DNA from: Deroplatys truncata
Taxonomy: Eukaryota; Arthropoda; Insecta; Mantodea; Mantidae
DNA: 64,000 bases
Direction of reading: 5' to 3'
Assembly: GCA_030765065.1 (NCBI GenBank)
Contig: CM060975.1
Location: 103,994,094 to 104,058,093, forward strand
Numbering within the stretch: position 1 is the stretch's first letter; the number at the start of each line of letters is the position of its first letter. This document shows, one piece after another, positions 5,692 to 60,716 of this stretch. The position numbers and the translations under genes were made by a program. A model generated the notes under the pieces. The model saw only the letters and a list, made by a program, of their open reading frames with translations, was not told where the DNA came from and did not search any database.

Positions 5692-5944
5692 TCCTCCGAG
5701 GCCTAGGGGTACCAAGAGCGCGGGTTCAAACCCGGCGGAAGGCGATAGACTTTTCGGGCATAAAAATCCTTAGCATGGCTTCCTTCGGAAGGTAAGTAAA
5801 GCTGGCGATCCCGTGTCGTAGATTTACGCACCTAAAAGAACCTCAGGCCTGATAAAGAGACCTCTGAGCAAAATTTCCGGTTTTTCACGCTCAATATAGA
5901 TTGGGACGCTAAGGACCACAGCAATTAAAGAGCGTCCATAAATT
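5692..5944 (+). repeat. SINE-A copy (tRNA-derived)
   Basis: The tRNA-like head contains box B GCGGGTTCAAACCCG. It is followed by the family body with CATGGCTTCCTTCGGAAGG, GTAGATTTACG, AAAAGAACCTCA and GGACCACAGCAATTAAAGAG, ending AGCGTCCATAAA. The head is shortened between boxes A and B compared with the full copies at 33290-33577 and 55476-55765. Confidence 0.88.
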
Positions 5945-7104
5945 GTTGTACTTCTCCGCCGCGGAGATACATAAATACGATTTTCGTTCATTAGCGCATT
6001 TTCATAATGCTTCCTCTATTTTTCTCTCATACAATATTAAAAGCAATTGTGTTTGATTGGTAAACACACTGCGGCGATAGCAGGTTGCACACCTGAGAGT
6101 ATTTCACAAATTATATCAACATTTAAAGTGCAGAGCCGATAAGCACGTAACCACCCTTCTCGAACAATCGAGCTGACCTTTTATTAGGTACTGTGATGTA
6201 GGACTAATATGAAAAATTTAAATAATAATTTTACAAATCATCATCAGTGACAGCAATTTCTAAGGACTAAAGGAATTCAAGTTGAATTGTTAGTGGACTT
6301 TACGCAGTGACGTTACAAATCACCCCCACCCCTCATACAGTCTGTTGGCGTTTGCAGACAGCACACACCAGAACGTGTTTACCTGGCCAACAGTGATCGC
6401 AGCCATTGTTGTTTACATTCTTTTTATTTATGTATGGTCTCAGTGTATATAACTTGAAGCCAGCAGCTTAATTCTGTCTGATGATTATCATCTCATTTTA
6501 ATGGCCTTACCAAACAGAGATGAAGAACGTCACAGAAAAAGTAGTGGTTACCGGAAAAATTGTGGGTCAAGAGTGGCTATTCAATAAGAATTATGTTTTC
6601 AATAAAGTTGTCTTATAACAGTATTTCTCAAACTGATTCATTAATATCTGCGTAGTTTAAGTTGTTTTAATATAATATAAGCAATTCTTTTTAGAAAATC
6701 ATGTTAACTTCACCTTTTAAAGAGCTCGATTTGCACCATCTAAGGCAATTAATCTAAATAATTATTCAACATCCATATTTCTACCACGAACATTAACAAA
6801 TAAAGCACAAAAACTCTTCGGCAATTAAAACTCAACCATATGCGTCATGTTTTCAGTTAATTAATGAAAAACAGTTTTATATGACAGATAAAATTATCTA
6901 CAACCAATACGTTAGATTAATTTGTTACAGGTTACGGTGTCATTTCTGTTACTAAGTTGCTAAGACTGATTGCCATTAATGTGCCTATTAATTACACAGT
7001 GACTCCAGAAAGTTTAGGTAATAAACGGAGATACTCCTCTGATTTTTAGTATGCAGAAAGAACAAACGTTATTAATGTGTGCTTTAGCAAATGTAACAAT
7101 ATTT
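5945..7104. other. Unassigned DNA
   Basis: A small perfect palindrome, TCTCCGCCGCGGAGA, lies at about 5957. A 28-codon frame at about 6500 (MALPNRDEERHRKSSGYRKN) lies after TATA-like sequence but is too short to call. Nothing else was recognised. Confidence 0.4.
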
Positions 7105-7956
7105 TTACTTTCTCTACTACGTATAGTAAGTAGGGGAAGTATTGCATTCCACCCAAGAATTCGATACCGAGATTTTATCGGAAATACATGTTTTGAGACC
7201 CCTTGAATCCAAAAGAAATTAGAATCACGTCCGTGTGTGTGTCTGTGAACAGCATAACTCAAAAGCGAAAAGTTGTATAAATACCAAACTTGGCATTTAG
7301 GTTCAGTATCTTACAAGGATGCGACACAAAGATTTTCAAGAAAATTACCCCACTCCAGACTACACTCTACATGGAGTATTTTTCGAAAATGTTTATTTTC
7401 TCAAAAATGGCTCTAACGATTTTGATTAAAATATCATTTGTTTACGATATTTTCATGGCAAATGAAATGTATATCCTGAATTTTCTGGGAATATCCCCAA
7501 AAGTCCTTTTCATTCAGTTTGACTTTTGCATAAATTTTAAACCGTAAGAGTTAACAAAATTGTTCTACGATTATTCTATACAAAAAACTTAGATCTCGTT
7601 AAAACACACAATTTATGTCACATACGTTTCGAGTGAACCAACCATCTTTGAGATATTCCTTGTTATTTGTTTTCATTTTGCAAAACTTAATTTTTTCAAA
7701 TGGGAATTCGATATTCCTTTTTTTTATGTCCTGTACATGCAAAGAGAATGGAATGCTCCACATAGCAACCAGCTCTTAAAAAGTTTACTATCGCTTAAAG
7801 CCTACTATAATCCCCTTGCACCTGCAACAAAATTAGCAATTTCTGCAAATGTTTATCTCCATTGACATGAAGTAGATGGAGAATAAGGTTTATAAAGATA
7901 CTGTATACAAGAGTAGAGAAAGTCATGCGAGTGCAACACATCCGACTTTTTATAAT
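7105..7956 (+). mobile_element. RC1 copy, full length
   Basis: Left terminus TTACTTTCTCTACTACGTA at 7105 with the terminal hairpin. Right terminus has GAGTAGAGAAAGTC followed by the short stem-loop and a T-run at about 7955. About 850 bp. The microsatellite is short in this copy (about 7228-7243). No open reading frame. Confidence 0.9.
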
Positions 7957-7967
7957 TTGTACACCCT

Positions 7968-8362
7968 TAGATATAGGCAAAAATTTACTACATAAAAATG
8001 CAGTTCTTACAAAAACATATAATTTGTGTCAAATAATGTTTGTTGATTAAATATTTCCTAGATTTTTTTATAGTTGATTGTAATTCTAAAGTACTGTATT
8101 ATGTAAATTTCAAGTGGTAGGTTGGTACGGTGTTTTTTCTTTCTCTCTCTCCCTTTCAAAGCCATCACACAGGACCCGCTTTTAAAAGATCTGATATGCT
8201 TAAATCTACTGCATTCTCTTGTACCAACAACGAAATATCCAATAAAATCATTTCTACGAATGTTGATCTCGATTAACATGAAGCAGATAGAAGAATAAGC
8301 TTTTGGAAGAATAGTTTGTAGATCGGGGAGGGAGAACGTCAATATAATACACCAGAGCTTTT
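7968..8362 (+). mobile_element. RC1 copy, right part only
   Basis: Directly follows the previous copy and starts inside the element at the CATATAATTTGTGTCA block. It continues to a diverged right end (GGGAGAACGTCAATATAATACACCAGA). Old copy. Confidence 0.7.
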
Positions 8363-8912: not shown

Positions 8913-9460
8913 TCTACTTTCTATTACTACGTAGAGGTAGCACTGCATTTCACCCAAAACTTCGATACGGAGATTTCATCGAAAATACACGTTTTGAGAC
9001 TCCCTAAATCCAAATGATAAGTCTCAGAAAAAGGTCCGTGCTAGCGCGTGAGTGTGTGTGTGTGCATAAACAACATAAATAAAAGGCTAAAAGTGGGTTA
9101 TATACCAAACTTTTCTCAAAAATTGTTCTAGTGCTTTTGAATAAAATACCATATGTTTAGGATGCTTGCATAACAAATAAAATTCATATCTTGACTTTTC
9201 TGCAAATACCACTGAAGTGCTGTTTATTCTGAACGAACTGCAAGCTATAGGCAGCATGCTACTATATGTGTTAAAGCATACAATTTATGTCAAATATTAT
9301 TGTTGTGGCGTTAAGCATTTCCGAGATATTCTTTGTTATTGGTTGAATTTTCAAATGCTCATGCTTTTCTCAAGTGGTAAGCCGCTATTCGTTTTCTCCC
9401 CTTCTCATGGTGATGCAAAGAACATGAAATTTCAATAGAACATTACGTACCGACCCGTTT

Positions 9461-9573
9461 TTACTTTCTCTAGGAGAAGTATTGCATTCCACCCAAAAAT
9501 TCGATACCGAAATTTCACCAGAAATACGTGTTTTGAGGCCCACTGATCCAAAAAAAGCATTTTTAGAAACGTT

Positions 9574-9620
<47 letters not shown>

Positions 9621-11029
9621 TGAACAGCATAACTCAAAACCGACTAGTCGGAGAAATCCCAAGCTTGGTATTTAGGTTCAGTATCTTTCAAAGCTTAGAC
9701 ACAAAGATTTTAGAGAAAATCTCTCCACACCAGACTACCCTTTACGTTGAAAATTTTTCGACAATTTTTATTTTCTTATAATTGGCTCTAACGATTTTGA
9801 TTAAAATATCATATGTTTAAGATATTTTTATGGCAAATGAAATGTACATCTTGAATTTTCTGGGAATGCCCCCAAAAATCCTCTTCATTTTAAATGACTT
9901 TTGCATAACTAGTAAACCGTAAGAAATAGGCAACATTCTACACAATAAATTTAGATCTTGTTAAAACACACAATTTATGTCATATACATTTTTTTTTGCT
10001 CAGGGAACCATTTCCGAGGTATTCCTTGTGGTGTTTGAATTCTCGAATACCAATACTTTTTCTCAAATGGTTATTCGTTAACTTCTTTTTTTACTTTTCT
10101 CCTACGTATATTAAGTAGGGGAAGTATTGCATTTCACTCAAAAATTCGATACCGAGATTTCATCGGAAATATGTGTTTTGAGGCCTCCTGAATCCAAAAA
10201 AAGTATTTTTGGAAACATGTCCGTGTGTGTGTCTGTGAACAGTACAACTCAGAAACGAACAGTCGGATAAACACCAAACTTGTATTTAGGTTCAGTATCT
10301 TCCAGAGATGCGACACGAAGGTTTTCAAGAAAATCCCCCCAGGCCAGGTTACCCTTTACATGGAACATTTTTCGAAAATATATTTTAAAAGCTCTAACGA
10401 TTTTGATTAAAGTATCATTTGAGTGAACCATTTTCGAGATATTTCTTGTTATTCCTTTAAATTTTCCAATACTTATACTTTTTCTCAAATGGGAATTCGT
10501 TATTCATTTTTTTTGTCTTGGATATGCAAAGAGTATTAAATTGTGGCAAAGAGATTGGTCTGCACATAACAACCAGCTATTAAGAGATATGTCTATGCTT
10601 AAAGGCTACTATATTTCTATATTGCCCTGGCAAATGTATATTTCCCTTACACCTACAAGAAAATTAGCAATAAAATAGAGCTTACAAATGTTATCTCGAT
10701 TAATATGAAGTAGAGGTAGAATAAGCGTGTGTAAAAATAGTTTGTACAATCGTAGAGAAAGTCATGTGAGTGTAACACATCAGATTTTTTATATAAGTCC
10801 TGGACATGTAAAGAGAATGGAATGCTCCACATAGCAACTAGCTCTTTAAAGATTTGACTATCGCTTAAAGCCAACCATTTTCAGCTTGTACCTACAAGAA
10901 AATTAGCAATAAGATAGTTTCTGCTAGCTTTTGTCTAGATTAACATGAAACAGATACAGAATAAGCGTTGCTAAAAACATTTTTACAAGAGTAATGTTAG
11001 TACTGTGAGTGTAACAGATCAGATTTTTT
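9461..11029 (+). mobile_element. RC1 middle copy of the nest
   Basis: Left end TTACTTTCTC at 9461 with a small deletion in the terminal hairpin. A long (TG)n tract of about 40 bases lies at 9580-9619. The sequence is interrupted at 10091 in its internal T-run and resumes at 10791 with ATATAAGTCCTGGACATG, ending GTGAGTGTAACAGATCAGATTTTT at 11029. It contains a third copy. Confidence 0.88.
10091..10790 (+). mobile_element. RC1 innermost copy, internally deleted
   Basis: Left end TTACTTTTCTCCTACGTA at 10091 and right end GTGAGTGTAACACATCAGATTTTTT at 10790, about 700 bp. Compared with full copies it lacks about 170 bases between ATTAAAGTATCATTT and GAGTGAACCATTTTCGAG (junction near 10418). Both termini are intact. 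Confidence 0.9.
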
Positions 11030-11243
11030 AAAAATGTGACTCGCTTTAACATATCCTACATCAAAATATCTAAATGTGTACTGAATGTTTATCTGCATTA
11101 AAAATAAATAGAATAATCAACAAGCTTTTGTACGAAAAGTCTGTAGAAGAGTGAGTAGAGAAAGTCATTTTGATGCTATTTATGGCTTCAATGCCTTAAA
11201 TAATCAATAAAATATTTTAGTACCCTGAAAAGTATAACTATTT

Positions 11244-11373
11244 TTACTTTCTCTGCTACGTATAGTAAGTAGGGGAAGTATTGTATTCCACCCTAAAATT
11301 CGATACCCAGATTTCACCGGAAATATATGTTTTGAGGCCCCCTGAATCCAAAAAAAGCATTTTTGGAAACATG

Positions 11374-11409
<36 letters not shown>

Positions 11410-12110
11410 TGTGAACAGCATAAGTCAGAAACGATCAGTCGGATAAACACCAAATTTGGTATTTAGGTTTAGTATCTTCCAGAAATACAACATGAAGGTT
11501 TTCAAGAAAATCCCCCACTCCAGATTACCCTTTACATGGAACTTTTTTCGAAAAATGTAATTCCCAAAAATGGCTCTAACGATTTTGTTGGAAATATCAT
11601 ATGTTTAAGATATTTTCATGACAAATAAAATCTATATCTTGAATTTTCTGGGAATGTCACCAAAAGTATTGTTTATTGTGAACGACTTTTGCGTAACTGG
11701 TAAACCATAAGAGATAGACAAAATGTTACTACACAAAAAATGTAGATCGCATTAAAATACACAATTTATGTCATATACATTTTTTGTTGAATTAACCATT
11801 TTCGAGATATTGCTTGTTATTCCCCTAAATTTTCCAATACTTTTACTTTTTCTCAAAGGGAATTTGTTCTTCATTTTTTATGCCCTGGCAATGCAAAGAG
11901 AATGGAATACTCCACATAGCAACCAGCTCTTAAAATATTTGACTATCGCTTAAAGCCTACCAATTCCCCTTGCATCTACAAGAAAATTAGCAATAAGATT
12001 AACATATCGATATTTCGATTAACATGAAGCATATGGAGAATAAACGTTTGTAATAATAGTTTGTACAAGAGTAGAGAAAGTCATGTGAGTGTAACACATC
12101 AGATTTTTTT
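11244..12110 (+). mobile_element. RC1 copy, full length, young
   Basis: The best plus-strand reference copy, about 867 bp. Left terminus TTACTTTCTCTGCTACG at 11244, (GT)n at 11377-11408, right terminus AAGAGTAGAGAAAGTCATG followed by the stem-loop ATGTGAGTGTAACACAT, CAGA and a T-run at 12110. No coding sequence. Both ends lie in T-runs without a duplicated flank. Confidence 0.93.
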
Positions 12111-13072: not shown

Positions 13073-13150
13073 TTTTCACTTCCTCTACTACTGACCTATG
13101 ATAAGTATTGTCATACTCCACCAACACTCTGAAGTTGAAACCCGTAAAGC
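13073..13150 (+). mobile_element. RC1 left-end fragment
   Basis: TTTCACTTCCTCTACTACTG with a decayed hairpin and the following TCATACTCCACC match the left terminus of RC1. Nothing beyond about 75 bases aligns. Confidence 0.55.
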
Positions 13151-15881: not shown

Positions 15882-15936
15882 CACATTAATAAATTCGCGT
15901 GGGCATTCCATTTTCTAAAAATGCTACTGTAGGTTT

Positions 15937-17195
15937 TTATTTTCGCTGCTACATTCCTTTAGTGGGAGTGTGCTCTATTCCGGCAAAAAATTCATTCGAG
16001 ATTTCTTCGAAAATACTGTTTTGAAGCACGCTGAATAAAAAATTAGATAAAGATACTGTGACTTGTGTGGGAGAGAGAGAGCAGCTTAATTCAAAAAAAT
16101 AAATGTCGGATAAACACCGAACTTGGTATTTAAGTTCGGCATCTTCCAGAGATGCGACACAAATATTTTCAAAAAAATCTGATGTGTTACACTCACATGA
16201 CTTTCTCTACTCTTGTACAATCTATTTTTACAAACGCCTATTCTCCATATGCTTCATATTAATCGAGATATCGAGATGTCAATCTTATTTGTAATTTTCT
16301 TGTAGATGCAAGGGGAATATGGTAGCTTTTAAGCGATAGTCAAATATTTTATCGCTGGTTGCTATGTGGCGCATTCCATTCTCTTTGCATGTCCAGGACA
16401 TAAAAAAATGAATAACGAATTTGAGAAAAAGTATAAGTATTGGAAAATTTAAGGAAATAACAAGCAATATCTCGAAAACGGTTCACTCAACAAAAAAAAA
16501 TGTATATGATATAAGTTGTGTATTTTAACGCCATCTACATTTTGTGTGTAGTAAAATTTTGTCTATCTCTTATGGTTTACCAGTTATGCAAAAGTCGTTC
16601 ATAATGAAGAATACTTTTGGAGACATTCCCAGAAATTTCGAGATATACATTTCATTTCTCATGACATTATCTTAAACATATGATATTTTCATCAAAATCG
16701 TTAGAGCCAGTTTTGAGAAAATTAAAATTTTCGAAAAATGTTCCATGTAAAGGATAGTCTGGGGTGGGGGGATTTTCTTGAAAATCTTCGTGTCGCATCT
16801 CTGGAAGATACTGAACGTAAATACCAAGTTTGGTGTTTATCCGACTGTTAGTTTTTGAGTTATGCTGTTCACAGACACACACACACACACAGACACACAG
16901 ACACACACACACACAGACACACAGACGGACATGTTTCCAAAAATGCTTTTTTTGGATTCAGGAGGTCTCAAAACATGTATTTCCGGTGAAATCTCGGTAT
17001 CGAATTTTTGGGTGGAATGCAATACTTCCCTTACTTACTATACGTAGTAGAGAAAGTAAAAAAAATTATCTCACTCCAAACTATCATTTACATATCAAAT
17101 TTTTAGAACTTTTTCTCAAAAATAGCCCTAACGATTTTGAAAAGAACTGTCATATATTTAAGATATTAACATGAAGATTTAAAATTATTGAGCAG
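15937..17195 (+). mobile_element. RC1 old copy split by a younger RC1 copy
   Basis: The left part is 15937-16171, from a diverged left terminus to GATGCGACACAAATATTTTC. The right part is 17061-17195, resuming ATTATCTCACTCCAAACTATC and ending near GATATTAACATGAAG. The two parts are contiguous in the RC1 consensus, so the copy between them is a later insertion. The right end of the old copy is missing. Confidence 0.82.
16172..17060 (-). mobile_element. RC1 copy, full length, young
   Basis: Right terminus (reverse strand) starts AAAAAATCTGATGTGTTACA at 16172. Left terminus ends TACGTAGTAGAGAAAGTAA at about 17059. About 889 bp. The microsatellite is a compound of CA and CAGACA units at 16875-16926. 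It sits inside an older plus-strand copy. Confidence 0.93.
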
Positions 17196-17345: not shown

Positions 17346-18449
17346 GGGTTTTATGGAGTTATTTTTATGGAGTTGAGACTTGGACATTAATAAAAAAAAT
17401 CTGATGTGTTACACTCACATGACTTTCTCTACTCTTGTACAATCTAATTTTACAAACGCCTATTCTCCATATGCTTCATGTTAATCGAGATATCGAGATG
17501 TCAATCTTATTGGTAATTTTCTTGTAGATGCAAGGGGAATATGGTAGCTTTTAAGCGAGTCAAATATTTTAACGCTGGTTGCTATGTGGCGAATTCCATT
17601 CTCTTTGCATGTTCAGGACATAAAAAAAATGAATAACGAATTTGAGAAAAAGTATAAGTATTGGAAAATTTAAGGAAATAACAAGCAATATCTCGAAAAC
17701 GGTTCACTCAACAAAAGAAACGTATATGACATAAGTTGTGTATTTTAACGCGATCTACATTTTTTGTGTAGTCAAATTTTGTCTATCTCTTATGGTTTAC
17801 CAGTTATGCAAAAGTCGTTCACAATGAAGAATATTTTTGGAGACATTCCCAGAAAATTCGAGATATACATTTTATTTGTCATGACAATATCTTAAACATA
17901 TGATATTTTAATCAAAATCGTTAGAGCCGTTTTTGAGAAAATTAAAATTTTCGAAAAATGTTCCATGTAAAGGGTAGTCTGGGGTGGGGGGATTTTCTTG
18001 AAAACCTTCGTGTCGCATCTCTGGAAGATACTGAACCTAAATACCAGGTTTGGTGTTTATCCGACTGTTCGTTTTTGAGTTATGCTGTTCACAGACACAC
18101 AGACACACAGACAGACAGACACACAGACACACAGACACACAGACAGACACACACACGGACATGTTTCCAAAAATGCTTTTTTTGGATTCAGTGATTCTCA
18201 AAACATGTATTTCCGGTGAAATCTCGGTATCGAATTTTTGGGTGGAATGCAATACTTCCCCTACTTACTATACGTAGTAGAGAAAGTAAAAACGTAAGGG
18301 ATATTGGAATAGCAGAAATGAAATTACTAAAACCTCTTGCTGAATATTTGCCTCTGAACCATCAGAGAAACGATAACAATGTAACCAACATATCAGAAGT
18401 AATGGCACAATGCAGATTGCAGAACAACGCAGTAAACATTAGAAGATAG
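17346..18449 (+). pseudogene. LINE reverse-transcriptase C-terminal remnant, split by RC1
   Basis: Before the inserted RC1 copy, 17346-17392 translates as LWSYFYGVETWTLIK. This matches the YG.ETW motif found after the catalytic palm domain of many non-LTR reverse transcriptases. After it, 18290-18449 reads RDIGIAEMKLLKPLAEYLPL and NHQRNDNNVTNISEV, the usual RIEAAEMKFLR...NDDIR-type continuation. The RC1 copy at 17393-18289 lies exactly between them. The piece is short and lacks the catalytic part. The clade is not certain. Recognition is from memory of the motif pair, not from a search. Confidence 0.7.
17393..18289 (-). mobile_element. RC1 copy, full length, young
   Basis: About 897 bp, very similar to 16172-17060 and in the same orientation. 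Right terminus TCTGATGTGTTACACTCACA at about 17400. Left terminus ends TACGTAGTAGAGAAAGTAA at 18289. The microsatellite at 18094-18154 is built of CAGACA/CACA units. It disrupts the LINE remnant. Confidence 0.93.
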
Positions 18450-20285: not shown

Positions 20286-20628
20286 TCGTGTCACAGATTA
20301 TTAGAGTAACTACGAACATACATTGTAACGGGTAGAAAAATTCTAATGATTTTTACACATCGTATATCAGTATTTGTGTCAATATAGACTATGTCTGGTA
20401 AGACAATTCGGGAAGTAGTTCTTTCCACAGCATGGGAAAAATGGCGATAGGAAGAAGAAAGAGGGCACAAGGTGTTTTGATATGGCAGAAGAGGAAAGGA
20501 CCCTAGAAAAGGTTCTGGTGGAGATAAAGAGCAACCTTGAGGATTAGGGTATAAAGTTAAATGCCAGAAAGAGAGAGAGAGGGACAAAGACTGTGGTTAA
20601 TAGAGGAAAAGGAAAAGTAAAGAAGAAT

Positions 20629-20792
20629 TGGAAAGGTAGAATCAGATGATTGAAAAATTCAATGTCATAGCCGGCATTTGAACCACGGATCTCCCGGTCT
20701 CCGTCCGGTTGCTGTAACCACTGATCTACCATGGCAACATGCGACACGACATTAAATTCTCCAACTGATTCGTATTTTTCCCGGTAAACCAC
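20629..20792 (-). repeat. SINE-B copy, minus arm of a palindrome
   Basis: Reverse-strand box A TGGTAGATCAGTGGTTACAG and box B GGTTCAAATGCCGG are readable. The sequence is a near-perfect inverted copy of 20850-21012. Confidence 0.85.
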
Positions 20793-20849
20793 AAGGAGAT
20801 CTCAGATTGTATTGAGATGTCATACCCCAATGGCGACTTACATACATGG

Positions 20850-21062
20850 TGGTTTACCGGGAAAAATACGAATCAGTTGGAGAATTTAATGTCGTGTCGC
20901 ATGTTGCCATGGTAGATCAGTGGTTAGAGCAACCGGACGGAGACCGGGAGATCCGTGGTTCAAATCCCGGCTATGGCATTGAATTTTTCAGTCATCTGAT
21001 TCTACATTTCCAACCCTGTCCAACACACGGCTTGTATGAAAGAACAATTAATTCCATAAAGA

Positions 21063-22388: not shown

Positions 22389-22596
22389 CCAATTTATATA
22401 CTTAAGCTATAGGACTCGGAGAATTTCGCAGGCTAGCTTACAGCTTTCATAAACTACCCCTACTAATATTTCCAACCCTCACAAATAAAACTGTACTATT
22501 TGGCCATTCAGACAAAAATCAGGAATTACACACACACTGTAGATCTCAGTGAGCCTTATTTCCGTAGGTACACTGTCGTACATAAAAGGTAGCCCA

Positions 22597-25500: not shown

Positions 25501-25926
25501 CTCCGTAAGGTTTCAACCTTCAGTAACCAACCTTTGATCGCTATAGTGTGTTACTCTCTGTAAGGTTTCAACCTTCAGGTAACCAGCTTTAAATCGCCAT
25601 AGTGTGTTACTCTCCGTAAGGTTTCAACCTTCAGGTAACCAACTTTAGATCGCCATAGTGTGTTACTCTCCGTAAGGTTTCAACCTTCAGGTAACCAACT
25701 TTAGATCGCCATAGTGTGTTACTCTCCGTAAGGTTTCCACCTTCTGTAACCAACCTTTGATCGCTATAGTGTGTTTCTCTCCGTAAGATTTCCACCTTCG
25801 GTAACCATCCTTTGATCTCCATAGTGTGTTACTCTCCGAAAGGTTTCCACCTTCGGTAACCAACCTTTGATCGCCATAGTGTTTTTCTCTCTGTAAGGTT
25901 ACCACCTTCAGATAACCAACTTTTGA
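22597..25926. repeat. 55/56-bp satellite array, about 60 monomers
   Basis: Head-to-tail monomers of the form GATCGCCATAGTGTGTTACT-CTCCGTAAGGTTTC-(variable)-GGTAACCAA-(variable). Two length forms exist: 55 bases with CGGTAACC and 56 with CAGGTAACC. Variant classes are grouped: TTCAACTTTCAGG near 22690-22985, TTTGCACCTACGG near 24060-24420 alternating CCTTTG/CATTTG ends, and TTCAACCTTCAGG..CTTTAG near 24850-25720. A six-monomer block at about 23110-23440 is repeated at about 23440-23770. There are no spacers between monomers. Minus-strand frames through it are by-products. Confidence 0.97.
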
Positions 25927-28190: not shown

Positions 28191-28338
28191 ACAATACAAC
28201 TTCTACTTCAAATTTGCTTCCTAAATGTGGGTTAATATCATAAACAACACCCTTCTTTATTACTAACCCTACCATTAACAAACTACGGGTTGAAAGGGGT
28301 TTAAATATTATAAGTGTAATGCATTCTGATGTATGATT

Positions 28339-36796: not shown

Positions 36797-37455
36797 AAAA
36801 AATCTGATATGTTATATCCACATGACTTCCTCTACCCTCTTTGTTTTATTAGTGAGAACACAAAGTATTCTTATGAAAGTTTGTTTTGCTATCTAATTCT
36901 AGTTTGCAGAAATAGCTACATTACATATTTCATTAGCATGCAAAGAGAACATTGCTAGTCAAATGTTTAAGAACTGGACGCTATATGCTGACCTTAAGAT
37001 TCGATTTCCATGCAAGCATTACAAACAACTGAAAATCGATTACAGTATTGAATGACAGTAGTGGACAAATCGAACTATTAATAACGGATATCTCGGAAAT
37101 GGATGATGCTACAAAAAAGTTTTTTTTTCAAATTAATTGTGCGTTTTAAAAATATCTACATGCTTTGTGTAATACGCCTTCCTATATCGCTTAAGTTTAC
37201 ACAAAATTTCTTCCCAATAAAGAGGTTAAGTCTATTCCCAGAAAATTAAAAATATACATTTTATTTGTCATGTAAATATCTTTAACGTATGGTATTTTAA
37301 TCAAAATCGTTAAGAACCATTCTTTAGAAAATAAGTTTCGAAAAACGTTCCATGTAAAGCTTAGTTTGTGGTTGGGGATTTTCTTGAAAATCTTCGTATT
37401 GCATCCTTAGAAACTACTGAACTTAATACCAATTTTGGTATTTATCACACTAGAC
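36797..37455 (-). mobile_element. RC1 copy, right and middle part
   Basis: Reverse-strand right end AAAATCTGATATGTTATATC at 36797, then the internal blocks to ACCAATTTTGGTATTTATC at about 37455. The left end and microsatellite are missing. It is directly followed by another copy in the same orientation. Confidence 0.8.
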
Positions 37456-37462
37456 CCTCTTC

Positions 37463-38138
37463 TAAAAATTTGATGTGACACATTCATATGACTTTCTCTA
37501 CCCTCTATTTTTATTAGTGGGTACACAAGCTATTGTTACTAAAGCTTATTTTTCTAATTACTACGTTTAATCCAAATAAACTTTGCAAAAATAGCTACAT
37601 AACACATTTCGTTACAAATACAAAGAGAACAGCCACAGTCAAATGTTTAAGAAGTGGAAGTTATATGCTGGCCTTAAAATTCTATACTGTTTCCATGCAA
37701 TCGCGAGAAACAACTAAAAGAATGGCAAGTATTGAACAATTCGAACCTCTTTTAACGAATATCTCAGAAACGGCATATGTCACAAAAAATATTTTAGGTA
37801 AGCTGTGTTTTAAAGAGATCTACATTTTTTGTGGTACGTTTTTGTCTATCGCTTAACGTTTACAAGTTATACAAGATTACACAAAATTTCTTCCGAATAA
37901 AGAGAATTTCCTAGGCTATTCTCAAAAAATTCAAGATATTCATTTTGTTTTTCAAGTAAATACCTTTCGTATATGGTATTTTAATCAAAATCGTTTGAGC
38001 TATTTTGAAGAATCTTCCACGTAAAGAGCAGTTCCGAGTGTAGGTATTTTCTTGAAAATCCTCATGTATTCTTGGAAGATACTTGACTGAAATACCAAGT
38101 TGGATATTTATCCGACTTTTCGGTTTTGAGTTATGGCA
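37463..38138 (-). mobile_element. RC1 copy, right and middle part
   Basis: Reverse-strand right end AAATTTGATGTGACACATTC at 37463, running to TCGGTTTTGAGTTATGGC at about 38138. It stops at almost the same internal point as the copy before it. This suggests tandem truncated copies, or one copy inserted near the boundary of the other. Confidence 0.78.
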
Positions 38139-39297: not shown

Positions 39298-39642
39298 GTT
39301 GAATGACGAGATGGATGACGGAACAGTCTATTAATCACTGCATCTGATACTGTTACGGTTCTGTAACGAACCTGCGTTTTATCCGATAAAAATCCATCAT
39401 CGCTAGCATATTATAAGATAAGCAACCCTGATTGGTCAATATACGAGGCCTTGGTAAACGTTATTGGTCAATATTAAGTATGCGGTATATGCATGGAAAC
39501 ATTAAAATAGAAGTGGCCCTACAAAGATGGAATTTTAAATTCAATTAACTGCTTACCTTCTTGTGGTTGAAAAAGAAATACTGTAAGATGATAAGTTAAT
39601 CCCTGCATTATAAGTTAGAACGAGATTAGACGGTTTTATAAT

Positions 39643-40480
39643 TTGCTTTCTCTAGCACCCACTTATAGCAGGTAGAGGAAGTATTGCATTACACCCAGAA
39701 AGTCTATTTCGAAATTTCACCGGAAATACATGTTTTGAGTACCCTTAATAGAAAGTTTTTTTATTACATGTCTGAGTGTGTGCGCACATGAACCAAACCT
39801 AAAAATCAAATGTCGGATGACTACCGAACTTCGCACTTAAGTTCTGTATCTTACTGGGAGGACACTAAGTTTCTTGAGAAAATTCCCCAACCCAAACTAC
39901 CCTTCACATCTGAAAGTGTTTCTTTGGTTTTAATTTTCCAAACAATGGTTAACATTTTGATTAAAATACTATACAAAATAAGATTATGTACATCTTGTAT
40001 ATATTAATACATATATTGAAATTTCTGGGAGCAGCCGTGAAGTCTTCATTCGGAATTAATTTTATATAAGTTTGTGTAACTGGTAAATTATAAGAGATAC
40101 AAAAAGCTTACTACAAAAACATGTACATCTATTTAAAATTGGCAATTTATTTCAAATAACTTTATTTATGGAATCAGTGATTTTGTGGAATGTTTCTTTA
40201 AATTGTTCAATAATTTTGTCATTTTTTGAAGTGCTGAAACCATTCAATAGTGCCTTATATCATGAAATTTTAAAGTGACCCAATTTTTAAACATTTGAGT
40301 ATGCCTTCAGCCTCCTGTGTCCCCATAATGTGTAATGAAATTATTTCTGCAAATGCTTATCTCGATTAACATGAACCAGATAGAAAAATAAGCTTTAGCA
40401 AGAATAGTTTGCAAAAGCTGTATAAAAATAAACGGTATTTGTTAAAGAAAGTCATGTGGATCTTAACACATCAAATGTTT
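39643..40480 (+). mobile_element. RC1 copy, near full length, old
   Basis: Left end GCTTTCTCTAGCACCCACTT with a decayed hairpin at 39645. Right end AAAGAAAGTCATGTGGATCT then TTAACACATCAAA at about 40475. About 838 bp. The microsatellite is reduced to GAGTGTGTGCGC. Divergence is clearly higher than in the 11244 or 16172 copies. Confidence 0.85.
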
Positions 40481-41745: not shown

Positions 41746-43391
41746 ATACCTTCAACCTGGACCATCATTGTGTTCAGGATATTATATTTAGGATTTTTCT
41801 GTGGTTGAGCGGAAGAGGAGGCCAAATGGCCATAACTCTGCCACGATAAATAAATCTCCTTTTTCATGGAAGACAAAAAAATATCTTCAGTGATATTAAA
41901 AGAAACAGATGAGGCGAAAAGTAAATATTTTTGTTTGCTTCACTGGGAATGAATACTGATCTACTGAAACAGTGTTTTACTTAAAATTCAAGATATAGTT
42001 TTTTCCGCAGCATTGGCATTTAAAATGTTCCGAAACCTCAATTGGCATTTATTATCGACCAACGTAAATAGCAAGTTACAAATGTGCATTTGTAATTGCG
42101 CACTGTAATTACTGCAACTATCTAAATCGCCATTTAAGATGCTGCGTTCGAAAGCAAATGCAGCATAAGATCAGAGAAACTGCACAATATTAACACTTAC
42201 AAATCTCAAACAATAAAAGGGCGAAACCGATCACATTATTCGGCTTTCTTTAAGAATTTTAGATCATATGTACTACAAATAATAACCAAAAGAATGATTT
42301 ATGAGCTCACTATGCAGTTATTATAAGCAGAATTGAAGTAACATTGAAAAAATATTTTGCCTATTTATTACTCGTTTAGCCAGGCGAGGGGCGTGCCGCC
42401 TGGAGTGAAAAATAGGTCCTTGTCTATAAAACATTATTGCCGCATAAGGATTATCGTGTCCCGTTGTGCTTCCTCTCTCGGGCGGATAGGTACTAATCCC
42501 TTCACCTAACTAAAACATGAGTAAACGTACAGTAGGTACAAATGTGAATATAAAAATGGATGATAAATCTTTAAGAAGATATTCATACTTTGCTTCAAAC
42601 TGTGAATGAATATAAGCTGTTACAGATACTGGCTAAGACTGCACCAATGGATTGACGTACTAAAGAAGCCCTTCTTTTGATAACAGGTGGTTGCAACAGG
42701 CCACTCTAAAATATTATTTATGCACTTTCGTCAGTTTCATGACAGGTGGCTTCTAACAATTTTAGTTAACTATGTTTCATTGTTTGAAGTCGTAGTAATA
42801 GGTACTAGCTAATGCATTCTAAACCAACCGAAAAAAATTGAAAGCAAAATAAAAGACTCGTACTTTTTTGAGATAGCGTTCCTATTTTCTGAGACGTGAT
42901 TTACTTTCACGGGATCTATTTTCCTCTGGCATTATTCCCTTGGGAACTTTTATGACCACGCCGTTAGGACTTTAAGGGATGATTTACGCTTTAATACATA
43001 TGGAATAGTTGGCCTTCTTTGATCTAGAACCACGTCTGCTGCCGGTTTAAAAAGGAAATGTTATTACCCGCCGTGCATGACATCCTATAAGAGACTATAT
43101 AGAAAAAGGGCTGCATTTTACGACCTATAACGTTAGAAATTAAATCAGTAAAATGTAATAAAAGATTTTTAGAAGCGCATACAGGAGTGATGCGTTTGAA
43201 TTAATATCCAATTTGTAATACATTCCCTTTTAAACGTCAGCCTTTACACCTTTTACAGGGATATTTTTATATTCCTTTTGTTCTAGTATTGAGTTCTGAA
43301 TTGCGATATATTTGTCACACAGTCAACACCTTCTTCGCAGCATAAATGGTCTATAGAGCCATTCGATGAAAGGGAGACATGAAGCATAAAA
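41746..43391. other. Unassigned DNA
   Basis: No gene or repeat was recognised in about 1.6 kb. Confidence 0.4.
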
Positions 43392-44428
43392 ATCGGATGA
43401 GTACTTTCACATTGGTTTCGCTACCAACTATGGTTTATTTTAATACACCTTCTACAAACTTCTCTTCAAATTTTTATTTTTCTACCCATTTCATGTCAAT
43501 CGAGATAAACTTTTGTTTAAATATGTTCTAGGTACAAACAAGAGGGATAGAAGAAACCGAATTGATAGATGTTTAAGAGCGGCTCGCCATATTTTGGCTT
43601 TGAAGTACATTACTCTTTCCACGACATTGTGAGAAACAAATGAATGGCGACAGCATTATCGAAAAATTCAAACTAATATTAATAGATATCATGGAAAAGA
43701 ATGATGCCACAACAAATTTATTTAAAATATATTGTGTTTTTAAACACATTTACATTTTTGGTGTAGTAAGTTTTTGTCTATCTCTTATAGTTTACCAGTA
43801 TACAAAATTTCACAAGTGAAGGGAACCTAATAAGCTATTCACATAAAACGTCGAGATAAACATTTTATTTATCATTTTAATATATTAAATACATGGTGTT
43901 TTAATGAAAATCGTCAGAGCCGATGTTGGAAAAATAAAAAAACATCTAAATGTTTTCAAAATAGTGGGGAGGAGGATTTTCTTTAAAATCTTCGTGTCGG
44001 ATTTTTTGATGATACTGATCTTAAATACCTAATTTAGTAACGCAGTGTTTCGATCCTGGCTGTCGTACTGGTGGTCCAAGGTTAGATTCCCGGCTGTGGG
44101 ATGGCGATTTTAATTCGTCCCTATCCACGCCTTTACCTCTGACTTGCCCATGTGAAGCCTCCAATGTCCAATGTGATTTGTAGTCCATGGCAAAAGCTGC
44201 GGGTCCTCTCATTTCACCGGCATCATCACCACCCTACCATCGGAAGTAACGAATTCTGCCCGCTGGGTACTTCCACCTTAGAAGTGGATCTAGTCATCTC
44301 TTGGTGGAATGAGATAAATCCCGTAGGTCATAGACCATATATGAGTAGAGTTAGAGACGACGGCGACGATTTATCCAGCATTTTGTTTTAGAATTACGCT
44401 GTTCATTCTTTCTCTCTCTCCCCCTCCC

Positions 44429-44468
<40 letters not shown>

Positions 44469-44609
44469 GCATACAAGGATGTATTTTCTAATATTACTTT
44501 ATTTACTAACCTCATAACATGTACTTCAGTGAAATCACGACTGAAATTTCTGGGTGGGAATACAACACTTATTCTTACCTAGTGTACGTATGTTGTAGAG
44601 AAAGTAAAA
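43392..44609 (-). mobile_element. RC1 copy with SINE-D inside, old
   Basis: Reverse-strand right end AAAAATCGGATGAGTACTTT at 43392. The left end with a diverged hairpin ends GTTGTAGAGAAAGTAA at 44609. A tRNA-derived SINE interrupts it at 44039-44380. The compound (TC)n(AC)n microsatellite at 44408-44469 sits at the usual RC1 microsatellite position. Confidence 0.83.
44039..44380 (+). repeat. SINE-D (tRNA-like head), inserted in RC1
   Basis: Box B-like GGTTAGATTCCCGG at about 44080 follows a weak box A region. A GC-richer body of about 280 bases (CTATCCACGCCTTTACCTCT, CTCTTGGTGGAATGAGATAA) ends near ATTTATCC. RC1 sequence resumes immediately after, so this is a later insertion. No other copy in the window. 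Confidence 0.62.
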
Positions 44610-44744
44610 ATTATTCTTCTCCTAAGCTTAACAGAACGTTTCCAGAGCTTGTTAGCGATCTTAAATATTCTGGAGAAAACAGCCAGCTTCTGACAACTGA
44701 AAGGGTTCCATTTTTAGAATGGTTATAATTAGCTGGGTGAGTTT

Positions 44745-45620
44745 TTACTTCCTCTACTACGTATAGTAAGTAGGGGAAGTATTGCATTCCACTGAAAAAT
44801 TCGATACCGAGATTTCAACGGAAATATATGTTTTGAGGCCTCCTGAATCCAAAAAAGTATTTTTGGAAACATATCCGTGTGCCTGTGTGTGTGAACATCA
44901 TAACTCAGAAACGAACAGTCGGATAAACACCAAACTTGGTATTTAGGTTCAGTATCTTCCAGAGATGCGACACGAAGGTTTACAAGAAAATCCCCCCACT
45001 CCAGATTACACTTTATATGGAACATTTTTCGAAAATTGTTATTTTCTCAAAAATGGCTAACGATTTTGATTAAAGTATCATATGTTTAATATATTTATAT
45101 GGATTATATAGAAAATAAAATGTATATCTTGAATTTTCTGGGAATGTCTTCAAAAGTATTCATTGTGAACGCCTTTTACATAACTGGTAAACCCTAAGAG
45201 AGAGACAAAATTTTACTACACAATTTATGTCATATACATTTTTCTTTGTTGAGTGAACCATTTTCGGGATGTTGCTTGTTATTCCCTTAAATTTTACAAT
45301 AGTTTTACTTTTTCTCAAATGGGAATTCGTTATTCATTTTTTGTCTTGGTTTATGCAAGGAGTATTAATCTGTGGCAAAGAGAATGGTGCTGCACCTAGC
45401 AACCAGCTATTAAGAGATATGTCTATGCTTAAAGGCTACTGTATTTTTATATTGCCCTTGCAAATATATATTCCCCTTACACCTGCAAGAAAATTAGCAA
45501 TAAGATAGAGTCTGCAAATGCTTATCTCGATTAACATGAAGTAGATGGAGAATAAGCGTTTGTAAAGATAGTTTGTACAAGAGTAGAGAAAGTCATGTGA
45601 GCTTAACACATCAGATTTTT
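44745..45620 (+). mobile_element. RC1 copy, full length, young
   Basis: About 876 bp. Left end TTACTTCCTCTACTACGTA, very short (TG)n at about 44875-44892, right end AGTAGAGAAAGTCATGTGAG then CTTAACACATCAGATTTTT at 45620. The right stem-loop loop sequence varies from other copies while the stem is kept. Confidence 0.92.
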
Positions 45621-47049
45621 TTCTTTATTTTAAAATAAACTTTAAAATGTGTTTTAATTTGTATATAACATCAGACAGTTGTAGCAGTAATTTCAGAGCA
45701 TAAGCGCATGTAGATAGATTATCTCCGTAAAATGCTGGCCGAAAAGTTCACATTAGAATAAAGGATTTCATGTACGACGCATTTCATGTGAAAACCAACT
45801 CGTGTCTAGAAGCATGTAAGCAATTTTTAAAGAAAGTTCCTGAAGTTAAATTCTAAGAGACACAGCTAGACGCTTGTTCTTAAATTTACAGAAATTGGTG
45901 TGTCAATAATAACACATTTAATTATGAATATTGGAGAATGCTGAATGCAATTGGAGAAGCTTTAGAAGGTTCAAGAAAATCCCCAAGTCCTCTGTATCGG
46001 GAAGTGGGCGTTTCAAAAGGATTATTTCAGGCCATAATTAAGCTAATAAAGTTGAAAGACTGTTTAGGCACATGTAACCCGGACGTTACGGGGTTAAGCT
46101 TCCGGGAGTCAGGCGCAACTACGTTGTATACCGCTTCCGCGCTCTCTCGGCCGAAACATAATATGACCTAAATTTGTAGGTACTAAAATTAGTATGTTAT
46201 ACTGCACATCATCTATAATGGCTTCCCTTATTTTCTGTATAATATTCAAGTAGACAAATTTGTAACCTGACTCATAGTAACCAAAATTCTAAGTTGGTAA
46301 CTAAAATTAAGTATTTATTTTCCAAGATAATACTCTCTAGTATTTCAAATATACTACGTGCAGAAAGTAGCTTCCTGGGATAATCTGGAGAGCAGACTTA
46401 TATAAAACACAAATGCTTAATCTTGCTGAGAATCCATTTCAAAGTAGCGCGTGTTACTTTAAAAATTACTTTAAAATTTTAAAAAAAAATGTAAATGATT
46501 TTTTAAATGTTGATTTTATGAACAGATATTCTATTAATCACGAATTAAAAGTAAACAGAAACGTTTTAGCTAGCAGTATTTGGTTGGAGTGCGCACATCT
46601 TTCAATTTAAAGAAAAAGTCTCCAGCTATGATACTAGTCACATGGAACGATCGTGAAGCTAATAATTCGGACTTTTTAACGTAGGTAAAGCGATATAACA
46701 TGGTGGAAAAAATGAATTCAAAGTTGGAGAACGTAACAGATATTCATATCACGTGACGATCTCTATTTCATACACATTGTGGGTAATATACCAAGCCCGA
46801 TGAAGGCTTTGAGCAACTACTCCTCGAGAATGCTTGCCGTTTGCATTGTGGTAAATTCTGGCATATGTGTCTTCCTAGCAATAGGGGATTGTAAATAAGT
46901 ATGCCTGAGTTAGGAGATAACTGCCAGCGAGTTATGAGCGATTTTTAAGTTAGAGCTGCAAAGCGAGTTTTGTTAAGTATTCCGCGTAATATATAGTTTA
47001 TTACAGTGGTGATAACAATGTGATAACGGTATTCATTCATTATCTGTTT
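45621..47049. other. Unassigned DNA
   Basis: No recognised gene. Frames at 45938-46171 and 46413-46610 lack domains. Confidence 0.4.
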
Positions 47050-47365: not shown

Positions 47366-47485
47366 TAGAACAAAATGTTCCCAAGGAATCATAGTAATTA
47401 ATAGGTAGAAAAGGTGTTTTTCCCACTACCAAGCTCTAAGGAATGCCATTGTCAAACTATTTTAAGTTACCAAAGTTGTCCTTTT

Positions 47486-48604
47486 TTAGTTTCTCTACTA
47501 CGTATAGTATGGGAAGTGTTACATTCCACCCAACAATTCCATACTGAGATTTCACCGGAAATAAAAAATTCATATACCTGTGTGAATATGTATCCATGTG
47601 TCTGTGAACAGCATTAACTCAAAAACGAAAAGCCGGATAAATACCAAACTAGGTATTTAGGTTCAGTATCTTTCAAAGATGCGACACGAAGATTTTCAAG
47701 AAAATCCCCCCACTCTAGCTTACTCTTTACATGGAACATTTCTCGAAAATTTTTATTTTCGCAAAAATGGCTCTAAAGATTTTGATTAAAATATCATATA
47801 TTTAAAATATTTTTATGGCAAATGAAATGTATATCAAGAATTTTTTAGGAATGTCCCCAGAAGTCCTCTTTATTTTTAGTGACCTGCATAACTGGTAAAC
47901 CGTAGGAGATAGAAAACATTTTACTAGACTATAAATGTAGATCTCGTTAAAACACACAGTTTATGTCATATATATATAATTTTTTTTTTGGCCGAGTGAA
48001 CTATTTCCGAGATATTCCTTGTTATACTTTTAAATTTTCCAATACTTATACTTTTGCTCAAATGATCATTCCTTATTCGTTTTTTAATGCCCTGGACATG
48101 CAAAGAAAATGGAATGACTCTAGTTCCCGAGGTCGCGGGTTCAAATCCGTCGGAGAGTGGTGGATTTTTTCGGGCGTAAAAATCCTTAGCATGGTTTCCT
48201 TCGGACGGGAAGTCAAGCCGGTGATACCGTGTCGTAGATTTACGGTTCGTAAAAGAACCTCAAGCCTAATAAAGAGGCCTCTGAGCAAACTTTCCGGTCT
48301 TTCACGCCCAATATAGAATTGGATGCTAAGGACCACAGCAGTTAAAGAGTGTCCATAAATAAAAGTCAATTTAATTTAATTTTAGAATGGAATGCTCCAC
48401 ATTGCAACCAGCACTTAAAATATTTGACTATCGCTTAAAGCCCACCATATTCCCCTTGCATCTACAAGAAAATTAGCAATAAGGTTAATCTCTTATGCAA
48501 ACGTTTGTCTCTATTAAAATGAAGTAGATGGAGAATAAGCGTTTGCAAAAATAGTTTGTACAAGAGTAGAGAAAGTCACGTGAAATTAACACATCAGATT
48601 TTTA
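47486..48604 (+). mobile_element. RC1 copy, full length, with SINE-A inside
   Basis: Left end TTAGTTTCTCTACTACGTA at 47486 with a shortened hairpin. Right end AGTAGAGAAAGTCACGTGAA then ATTAACACATCAGATTTTT at 48604. Excluding the 0.27-kb SINE it is about 850 bp. The microsatellite is nearly absent. Confidence 0.92.
48118..48383 (+). repeat. SINE-A copy, head truncated, nested in RC1
   Basis: Starts CTCTAGTTCCCGAGGTCGCG, lacks box A, keeps box B GCGGGTTCAAATCC, and ends AATAAAAGTCAATTTAATTT. It is flanked by AAAATGGAATG and AGAATGGAATG, a short target duplication of RC1 sequence. This proves that it inserted into an existing RC1 copy. Confidence 0.93.
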
Positions 48605-59001: not shown

Positions 59002-59711
59002 AAAAAATCTGATGTGTTACACTCACATGACTTTCGCTACTCTTGTACAAACTATTTTTACAAACGCTTATTCTCCATATGCTTCATGTTAATCGAGATA
59101 TCGAGATGTCAATCTTATTGCTAGTTTTATTGTAGATGCAAAGGGAATATGGTAGGTTTCAAGCGATAGTCAAATATTTTAAGCACTGGTTGCTATGTGG
59201 CGCATTCCATTCTCTTTGCATGTCCAGGACATACAAAAAATGAATAACAAATTTGAGAAAAAGTATAAGTATTGGAAAATTTAAGGGAATAACAAGCAAT
59301 ATCTCGAAAACGGTTCACTCAACAACAAAACTGTATATGACATAAATTGTGTATTTTAACGCGATCTACATTTTGTGTGTAGTAAAATTTTGTCTATCTC
59401 TTATGGTTTACCAGTTATGCAAAAGTCGTTCACAATGAACAATACTTTTTGAGACATTCCCAGAAAATTCGAGATATACATTTCATTTCTCATGTCAATA
59501 TCTTAAACATGTGATATTTTAATCAAAATCGTTAGAGCCATTTTTGAGAAAATTAAAATTTTCGAAAAATGTTCCATATAAAGGGTAGTCTGGGGTGGGG
59601 GAATTTTCTTGAAAACCTTCGTGTCGCATCTCTGGACGATACCAAACCTAAATACTAAGTTTGGTGTTTATCCGACTGTTCGTTTCTGAGTTATGCTGTT
59701 CACAGACACAA

Positions 59712-59747
<36 letters not shown>

Positions 59748-59891
59748 ACACACACACGGACATGTTTCCAAAAATGCTTTTTTTGGATTCAGGTGGTCTC
59801 AAAACATGTATTTCCGGCGAAATCTCGGTATCGAATTTTAGGGTCGAATACAATACTTCCCCTACTTACTATACGTAGTAGAGAAAGTAAA
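59002..59891 (-). mobile_element. RC1 copy, full length, young
   Basis: About 890 bp. Right end AAAAAATCTGATGTGTTACA at 59002, (CA)n at about 59714-59757, left end TACGTAGTAGAGAAAGTAA at 59891. Very close to the copies at 16172 and 17393, implying recent spread. Confidence 0.93.
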
Positions 59892-60716
59892 AATTAAATG
59901 AAACACTTTGGCTTCTTCTTTTGTTAAAATGTAGTCATGAAATAAATTAGGGAAGTCCTTGAGAGTATTCCTAAAATGTTTCTTGAATAAAAACTTACCT
60001 TGTGTGAAATGGTATTTGAATACTTTTCTACGCTCATTAGTAAAATTGTCAAAACATTACTTCTTATTTTGTGTAAAAACCTGAAGTGATAGAAAAAACG
60101 GAAGTTATTTCTGGAATCAGCATAAAAATTTGATACAAGAACACCTACTTTTAAGAAATCATCTGACAAAAATTTGAAAATGCAGACTAGTGTTATTAGC
60201 GTCTTCAGTTGTGCCTAAATAACATTTGTATCAAGAGTATATATTGAAAGAGAATATATCGCTCTATTGTACAAAGCTGCCCCTCTGGAATATATTTTTC
60301 CTTGTGTGTTTACTCTATTATGAAAGCAAAGCGACAATATAATATGTGGTTGCACTACCACCTTCACTTTCCTTCCGCAGCTCCACTTCTGCATTTGGAT
60401 AGCACCGCGTATTATAATTTGTTTTCAATAGTGTTAAGTGTTACTGCGCATGCTCTCTTTACCCTATTGACCTTCATGTTCGATGTCTATCTGTAACCGA
60501 CATGTCATAGCGGGGCATCTCCATGCAACATTGGCATGTGTATATCGCCCATACACTGTTTTCTTTCTTCTGAGTATCAATGTCTTTGTTGTAGATTCGT
60601 TAGTGAAGCTGTGCGTTTTGAAGCTTATATTAATATAATTAAATGGGGCATGTTCTGGGGAGTTTAATACGTACATATAACTTTAAGACGTCATTCTTTT
60701 AATAAAACATTCATTA
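59892..60716. other. Unassigned DNA
   Basis: No feature recognised. Frames here are short and without domains. Confidence 0.4.

What the first reader, a model, noticed from the sequence alone, without database searches (positions are those of the whole stretch)
11244..12110. A high-copy repeat family (RC1) with the anatomy of Helentron-associated rolling-circle elements
Seen: about 25 copies share a 12-base subterminal inverted repeat (ACTTTCTCTACT / AGTAGAGAAAGT), a left-end hairpin (ACTTTCTCTACT...AGTAGGGGAAGT), and a short stem-loop beyond the right repeat (ATGTG...CACAT) followed by CAGA and a T-run. A TG microsatellite lies at a fixed position near the left end. There is no coding and no obvious target duplication. 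Known: HINE/DINE-1 elements in Drosophila have subterminal inverted repeats, a 3' stem-loop, an internal microsatellite and TT insertion. Inferred: RC1 is such a family, moved by an unseen Helentron.
Basis: partly seen in the sequence, partly recalled or inferred. Interest (0 to 1): 0.85.

Follow-up and report, generated by a model that had tools for sequence, protein, structure and literature searches.

The report
Helentron-dependent repeats and their autonomous partner
This repeat is a non-coding jumping-gene family (a HINE) with more than a hundred thousand left ends counted in one large genome, and its apparent driver, a rolling-circle transposon with the same ends and an open coding frame, is in that genome too.

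Summary
RC1 covers 24% of the window. An exact 34-base left-end pattern occurs 138,838 times in the 4.29-Gb genome. In 20 evenly placed 1.5-kb stretches RC1 covers 10.4%.

(1) Paralogous empty sites: RC1 enters T-runs. In the sites read only Ts are gained and no other base is duplicated. (2) Autonomous partner: the genome holds a 10.4-kb Rep/PIF1-helicase/AP-endonuclease element with RC1 ends. The one copy read through has a single 2,324-codon frame, the Helentron-diagnostic GSP at the Rep motif and a C-terminal Exo_endo_phos_2 domain. All 11 copies examined share its right end.

RC1 is therefore a HINE family of DINE-1 architecture: a new member of a known kind, notable for scale and its partner. 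Unusually, 8 of 11 Helentron copies begin with an RC1 left end placed before their own, as if a Helentron nested in RC1 had adopted its host's terminus. RC1 is not a simple deletion derivative of this Helentron: their last 60 bp agree at only 38 positions. Trans-mobilisation is inferred.

The parts
11241..12110 (+). RC1 copy given in the finding (complete, both ends)
   Evidence: model 1-877, 992 bits
11246..11257 (+). left subterminal inverted repeat; also the 5' arm of the left hairpin
11268..11279 (+). 3' arm of left hairpin (AGTAGGGGAAGT)
11377..11413 (+). internal (GT)n microsatellite
12070..12081 (+). right subterminal inverted repeat (AGTAGAGAAAGT)
12083..12099 (+). right stem-loop ATGTG-7 nt-CACAT, followed by CAGA and T7
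   Evidence: weak as a fold
7102..7951 (+). RC1 complete copy A, followed directly by a 5'-truncated RC1 (7952-8361)
9459..11029 (+). RC1 copy interrupted by a nested RC1 (10088-10789) in its T-run at consensus 637-644
15934..17182 (+). RC1 copy interrupted by a complete RC1 in opposite orientation (16172-17062, minus) at an A/T run
17394..18292 (-). RC1 complete copy D
44742..45621 (+). RC1 complete copy E
47483..48603 (+). RC1 copy G with a SINE-like repeat inserted at 48117-48377
59002..59893 (-). RC1 complete copy F
39642..40480 (+). older RC1 copy, both ends present but diverged
36797..38136 (-). two older RC1 copies head to tail; no RC1 match left of the microsatellite in either
43388..44610 (-). 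older RC1 copy split near the microsatellite by a ~330-bp insert

Best explanation
RC1 is a non-autonomous Helentron (a HINE of the DINE-1 architecture). A Rep/helicase/endonuclease made by an autonomous Helentron in the same genome recognises the two ends shared by both elements: the left subterminal repeat with its hairpin, and the right subterminal repeat with stem-loop, CAGA and Ts. One strand is copied by rolling-circle replication and joined into a host T-run near its 5' edge, with no mixed-base target duplication. RC1's own internal T-runs are targets, which gives nested and head-to-tail copies. Shown: shared ends, coding partner, T-run target, nesting. Inferred: single-strand rolling-circle chemistry and trans-mobilisation.
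For: Anatomy as defined for HINE/DINE-1. 138,838 exact left ends genome-wide, reversed-pattern control 0. The T-run before the left repeat is exactly T5 in 28 of 40 ends (range 2-8); the right T-run varies 4-8 in 26 of 28. 7 of 25 complete copies had a match running across the joined flanks; cleanest, satellite L014: empty GTGACAG-T6-ATATTG, filled T5/T6. Of 12 left-flank junctions into RC1, 10 fall at consensus T-runs and 2, in reverse, near A-runs. Partner: 152 PF14214 matches, 18 of those listed with open frames of 2,108-2,543 aa. The C1 copy encodes DUF6570, Helitron_like_N (1.2e-27), PIF1 (1.1e-28) and Exo_endo_phos_2 (2.2e-6, 28.0 bits against a cut-off of 27.4), with RGSPHEH and YIIKYISK. 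10 of 10 further copies have the same right end; in 9 of 10 the Helentron's own RC1-type left end was read; outer left ends in 7 lie in unrelated flanks. RC1 consensus 1-640, 2-731 and 837-874 align to the Helentron at 94.6, 90.6 and 94.7%.
Against: RC1's last 60 bp agree with the Helentron's at 38 of 60 positions, below the 80% that Thomas et al. ask for one subfamily, so another Helentron may be the closer partner. The right stem-loop is not a significant fold. Hairpin covariation does not exceed shuffles, and several diverged left ends no longer form the hairpin. A pure-T duplication cannot be told from Ts carried by the element. No similarity to the (recalled) DINE-1 core beyond chance. 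No solved endonuclease was matched by the C-terminal part.
Confidence: 0.95

Rival explanations
1. A MITE moved by a DDE transposase: terminal inverted repeats, cut-and-paste, fixed target duplication (here it would have to be all T).
For: Short inverted repeats near both ends; a TTTTT duplication would also fit the T counts at empty sites.
Against: The right repeat lies 22 bases plus the T-run inside the end, so the two ends are asymmetric. The coding element with these ends encodes Rep/PIF1/EN. The only Pfam match above cut-off among the 40 of 93 window ORFs scanned, a mariner piece at 2135-2389, is not in an RC1 copy.
Confidence: 0.03
2. A SINE or other element copied by target-primed reverse transcription, read in the opposite orientation with a short A tail.
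For: A/T runs at both ends; some copies are truncated on one side.
Against: Truncations occur on either side; no match to two simple pol III box patterns on either strand of the consensus; no mixed-base target duplication in the sites read; hairpin and subterminal repeats shared with a Rep/Hel element.
Confidence: 0.01
3. Canonical Helitron non-autonomous family (5'-TC...CTRR-3', insertion between A and T; these features are recalled).
For: Same Rep/PIF1 enzyme class; the genome also holds higher-scoring Helitron_like_N matches of another kind.
Against: Ends are T5-ACTTTC...CAGA with inverted repeats and T-run target; partner has GSP, not the L of Helitrons, and a C-terminal endonuclease.
Confidence: 0.01

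Closest known systems
DINE-1 / INE-1 of Drosophila (Yang & Barbash 2008, PMC2374699; passages seen)
   Different: RC1's sequences are its own; microsatellite mainly TG/TGTC rather than (CCGT)n(CTGT)n; stem of 5 bp instead of 7-11; no tandem central repeats noticed; copy number far higher (rows of the DINE-1 table seen: 334-5,190 hits).
HINE-Mo / Helentron-Mo of the mite Metaseiulus and Culex Helentrons (Thomas et al. 2014, PMC4067079; abstract, passages and sections 7-9 read)
   Same: Shared subterminal repeats between non-autonomous copies and a Rep/Hel/EN element, T-strings at borders, no target modification, GSP signature, Exo_endo_phos_2.
   Different: RC1 repeats are not themselves palindromic; right repeat 22 nt plus Ts from the end (38-60 in mite); RC1 is not a simple deletion derivative of the Helentron copy read; no RPA-like second ORF recognised (frames of 100 aa or more listed for one copy, not scanned for RPA).

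Membership tests
HINE (non-autonomous Helentron) | 11-15 bp subterminal inverted repeats, 5' one next to the end, 3' one inside the end | tested here: met
   12 bp; 3' spacing shorter than the mite range
HINE (non-autonomous Helentron) | inverted repeat pairing with the 5' subterminal repeat (DINE-1 type) | tested here: met
   z -3.9; among diverged copies n18669, n39642 and n52504 still fold, n9459, n44610, n13078 and n8915 do not; covariation not above shuffles
HINE (non-autonomous Helentron) | 3' palindrome/stem-loop | tested here: inconclusive
   ATGTG...CACAT exact in 7 of 18 right-end rows and in the Helentron, but 5 bp and z -0.3
HINE (non-autonomous Helentron) | T-rich target, variable Ts at borders, no target modification shown by empty sites | tested here: met
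   an all-T duplication not excluded
HINE (non-autonomous Helentron) | no coding capacity | tested here: met
   frames of 110 aa or more that overlap RC1 are 9428-9781, 16821-17174, 37518-37856, 47951-48316 and (in part) 61117-61731, up to 121 aa except the last; only the last was scanned with Pfam, no match
HINE (non-autonomous Helentron) | autonomous Helentron sharing both termini (family rule: at least 11 bp identical subterminal repeats) | tested here: met
   11 bp identical on the right
[quoted passage not shown]
   38 of 60 with the Helentron copy read; other Helentron lineages not read
Helentron (the partner) | Rep (HUH) + PIF1 helicase + C-terminal AP endonuclease, GSP signature | tested here: met
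   tested in one copy (C1:248257786)
Helentron (the partner) | Helentron clade in Rep/helicase phylogeny | not tested
   no named Helentron sequences were fetched
DINE-1 proper | homologous block A core | tested here: not met
   local alignment to a recalled DINE-1 sequence: score reached by 33% of shuffles; weak test, since the reference is from recall
DDE MITE | fixed target duplication | tested here: not met
   no non-T duplication in the empty sites read; an all-T one not excluded

The most novel reading that the evidence does not exclude
The Helentron lineage most often sampled is a composite made by end capture. A Helentron landed in the internal T-run of an RC1 copy (consensus ~641), so that RC1's left end lay upstream of the Helentron's own, and the unit from RC1's left end to the Helentron's right end then amplified as one element. 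8 of 11 copies read have RC1 1-641 followed by a second, inner left end. L045 shows what looks like the un-captured nested state in another RC1 (RC1 440-644 | Helentron | RC1 638-838), and L049 has a single left end in the ~350 bases read upstream. If so, the non-autonomous family supplies new ends to its driver, and an RC1 left end has been used by the Helentron machinery in nature.
Probability: 0.7. Interest if true: 0.6.

Novelty: new member of a known kind. Interest (0 to 1): 0.5.

Why it matters
In the 2014 Helentron paper the transposition mechanism is inferred from sequence, and its authors say biochemical studies will be necessary (passage seen). This genome offers at least 18 listed copies with frames over 2,100 aa, over a hundred thousand left ends and readable empty sites, so the end requirements, the role of the endonuclease in the T-run target and the source of the border Ts become directly testable. 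It may be one of the largest HINE amplifications; that is recollection, no survey of copy numbers was made.

Tried and rejected
MITE, SINE and canonical Helitron readings: see rivals.

Homology to the DINE-1 core: a resemblance by eye (GTCCGT microsatellite, TGAAC) did not survive shuffling (A2 block score 18 vs mean 16.7, reached by 33% of 2,000 shuffles; left block 19%). Not claimed. A Drosophila primer in PMC6315112 (one passage seen) contains part of the recalled string, which is all that checks the recall.

Covariation of the left hairpin: 86.9% of cells paired against 46.6-63.1% for slid versions, but no better than shuffled 3' letters (83 of 500 as high); one pair has changes on both sides, in 3 sequences.

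Relatives elsewhere: exact patterns in viral contigs (5 scans) and genome contigs (2 scans), and blastn against plasmids and phages, gave nothing, as expected for a eukaryote. 7 papers hold one of three 12-base strings; none has a title about transposons, and none was opened. Literature searches for Helentron with spider, SINE strings, HLE2 and mini-me did not add sources (listings only).

Rep/Hel inside the window: 40 of 93 stop-to-stop ORFs of at least 70 aa outside RC1 were scanned with Pfam; none is Rep or helicase. The other 53 were not scanned.

Endonuclease: phmmer of the C-terminal 261 aa against PDB sequences gave only one match, E 0.46, an integrase; the assignment rests on Pfam and the SDHKP motif (motif recalled).

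Ungapped comparison of Helentron left ends is not meaningful because of microsatellite indels; (blastn, 98.0-98.4% over ~1.2 kb between 7 copies and the C1 copy) replaces it. In L043 the left end found belongs to an RC1 sitting inside the Helentron's 5' region, so its outer left end was not read. L021's joined-flank match is not interpretable as an empty site. The list printed was cut in the middle, within the rows of the two L014 queries. In one search the right run length printed for the window nest at 10088 is wrong (slice error); the counts used (T7/T6) are read. In one search the T-runs of 0 for n9459 and n18669 come from an offset of one base; one search shows T5 for the first and T2 for the second.

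A genome-wide count of the Helentron right end was asked for nine times and never answered.

Full report
What is there. The copy in the finding (11241-12110) and six others in the window are near complete; the six without a SINE-like insert are 82-96% identical to each other. Their consensus begins T5-ACTTTCTCTACT-ACGTATAGTA-AGTAGGGGAAGT and ends AGTAGAGAAAGT-C-ATGTG-7 nt-CACAT-CAGA-Tn, with a TG/TGTC microsatellite in the left part. The ends are among the best conserved parts (96.3% in the first 50 alignment columns, 92.6% in the last 27, 81.7-93.4% between). A profile of six copies covers 23.9% of the window in 36 pieces.

How common. The genome holding the window has 4.29 Gb in 818 contigs, and an exact left-end 34-base pattern occurs 69,226 + 69,612 times, against 0 for the reversed control. 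In 20 stretches of 1.5 kb placed at round coordinates on ten contigs, RC1 covers 3,120 of 30,000 bases (10.4%; bootstrap 3.8-18.2%; 9 of 20 stretches have any), and none in shuffled sequence. The window is therefore probably richer than average.

Where it inserts. The sample is the window plus 20 ten-kb stretches chosen around exact left ends, so it is biased to young copies. 40 left ends matched by a pattern have T-runs of 2-8, exactly 5 in 28; the base before the run is A in 24, G in 8 and C in 8. 28 right ends have T-runs of 4-8, with 2 at zero. For 25 complete copies the two flanks were joined and compared with the sample; 7 had a match running across the joint. The cleanest is an RC1 in a ~49-bp satellite in L014: empty GTGACAG-T6-ATATTG, filled GTGACAG-T5-[RC1]-T6-ATATTG, flanks 99.4% identical over 166 bases. 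An RC1 within RC1 in L024 has T5 on the left and T7 on the right; of five empty copies displayed, four have T7 and one T8.

In those two sites the right run equals the empty site's run and five Ts are gained on the left. The other sites are less exact: L024 + has 5/6 where its empty relative has T5 and then G; L015 has 5/6 against T5; the two window nests have 7/6 and 8/7 where empty relatives have about 7 T or T-rich positions. In all of these only Ts are gained. This is either Ts carried by the element or a duplication of Ts; the two cannot be told apart. The constant offset from the 5' edge of the T-run is close to what Yang & Barbash report for DINE-1 (WTTTT; passages seen).

Of 12 left-flank junctions into RC1, 10 map to its T-runs at consensus 610-614 (4, all in the tandem units of L019/L020), 637-644 (3) and 870-875 (3). 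Two, in reverse orientation, map near A-runs. This explains nested and head-to-tail copies such as those in the window.

The autonomous partner. A search for Helitron_like_N (PF14214) in the same genome gave 152 matches (150 of 291 candidates scored, so a lower bound). Among those listed, 18 sit in open frames of 2,108-2,543 aa. One (C1:248257786) was read with its flanks. Its single frame of 2,324 codons has no stop. Domains on the 2,245-aa part scanned include DUF6570, Helitron_like_N, PIF1 and Pif1_2B. The C-terminal 261 aa match Exo_endo_phos_2 just above its cut-off. The Rep motif reads VEFQMRGSPHEH, with the S that Thomas et al. give as diagnostic of Helentrons against the L of Helitrons, and YIIKYISK follows. 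The element, 10,441 bp as bounded by its outer left end and right end, matches RC1 consensus 1-640 (94.6%), 2-731 (90.6%) and 837-874 (94.7%).

Ten further copies, chosen for long frames, were sampled at both ends. 10 of 10 have the identical right end GTAGAGAAAGTTATGTGAATGTAACACATCAGA followed by Ts. In 9 of 10 the window holds the Helentron's own RC1-type left end; in L043 the left end found is that of an RC1 inside the Helentron's 5' region. Outer left ends were read in 7; flanks beyond the ends are unrelated (15-42% ungapped identity over 55 bases). Whole Helentrons sit in RC1: cleanly in L037/L038 (left flank RC1 437-641, right flank 637-837), L045/L046 (440-644, 638-838) and, reversed, L047/L048 (298-111, 115-4). 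Less cleanly they do so in L033, L035, L039 and L041. L031 and L049 have no RC1 in the 200 bases on either side.

End capture. Eight of the 11 copies (C1, L031, L033, L035, L037, L039, L041, L047) start with RC1 1-641 and then a second left end; L045 and L049 show only the inner one in the ~320-350 bases read upstream, and L043 is unresolved. The junction is the RC1 T-run at ~641. L045 lies in the same T-run of an RC1 that differs from the one in the composites (CTCAAATTCG against CTCAAATGCG just before the T-run). The simplest reading (inference) is that a Helentron nested in RC1 was mobilised from RC1's left end to its own right end, and that the composite then multiplied. That would also be natural evidence that an RC1 left end works with the Helentron's right end and enzyme. 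A rival is that a 3'-truncated RC1 became joined to the Helentron's left end some other way.

Limits. RC1's last 60 bp agree with the Helentron's at 38 of 60 positions (32 of the last 35), so RC1 belongs to the same family by the subterminal-repeat rule but not the same subfamily. RC1 is not a simple deletion derivative of the copy read, and a closer partner may exist. The right stem-loop is short and unremarkable as a fold. No phylogeny was made. No tool names the host; an invertebrate is my guess from recall of similar repeats, and I make no claim on it.

Verdict. It is a new member of a known kind, of more than routine interest because of its scale, the coding copies with open frames, the T-run target rule and the probable end capture.

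Noticed in passing
window 22588-25931: Satellite of about 60 copies of a 55-bp unit, 93% matches.
   Followed up: no
window 5719-5943, 28337-28591, 33289-33581, 38188-38452, 48117-48377, 55480-55770: Six copies of a ~225-295-bp SINE-like repeat, 83-87% identical; those at 48117 and 55480 interrupt RC1 copies.
   Followed up: partly
window 27360-28180, 33879-34704, 40838-41740: Three copies of an ~800-bp repeat, 71-77% identical, unclassified.
   Followed up: no
window 2135-2389 (minus): Mariner-type transposase piece (Transposase_1, 3.3e-23).
   Followed up: no
window 20628-21013: Palindrome (90% inverted self-match) that contains an Rfam tRNA match at 20906-20978 (2.4e-6); ARAGORN finds no tRNA.
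   Followed up: no
window 13078-13089 and 50363-50374: Two RC1-like end repeats without an adjoining RC1 body: old copies, or other families with the same ends.
   Followed up: partly
L019/L020 (G000:C1:8173001-8193000): RC1-derived head-to-tail units about 477 bp apart, lacking the right end, in two inverted copies about 10 kb apart.
   Followed up: no
L014: Satellite of ~49-bp units with two RC1 copies about 7.4 kb apart in identical flanks, so RC1 was probably multiplied as part of a longer satellite repeat.
   Followed up: partly
G000:C1:38116489, C13:170325206, C4:128870265 and others: Other Helitron_like_N matches scoring higher (up to 196 bits), many with stops; termini not read.
   Followed up: no
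L029:3264-9998 (minus), residues 1-133: N-terminal match to Herpes_teg_N (2.9e-5, 24.2 bits, just under the cut-off of 25) in the Helentron protein, possibly a cysteine-protease-like domain.
   Followed up: no
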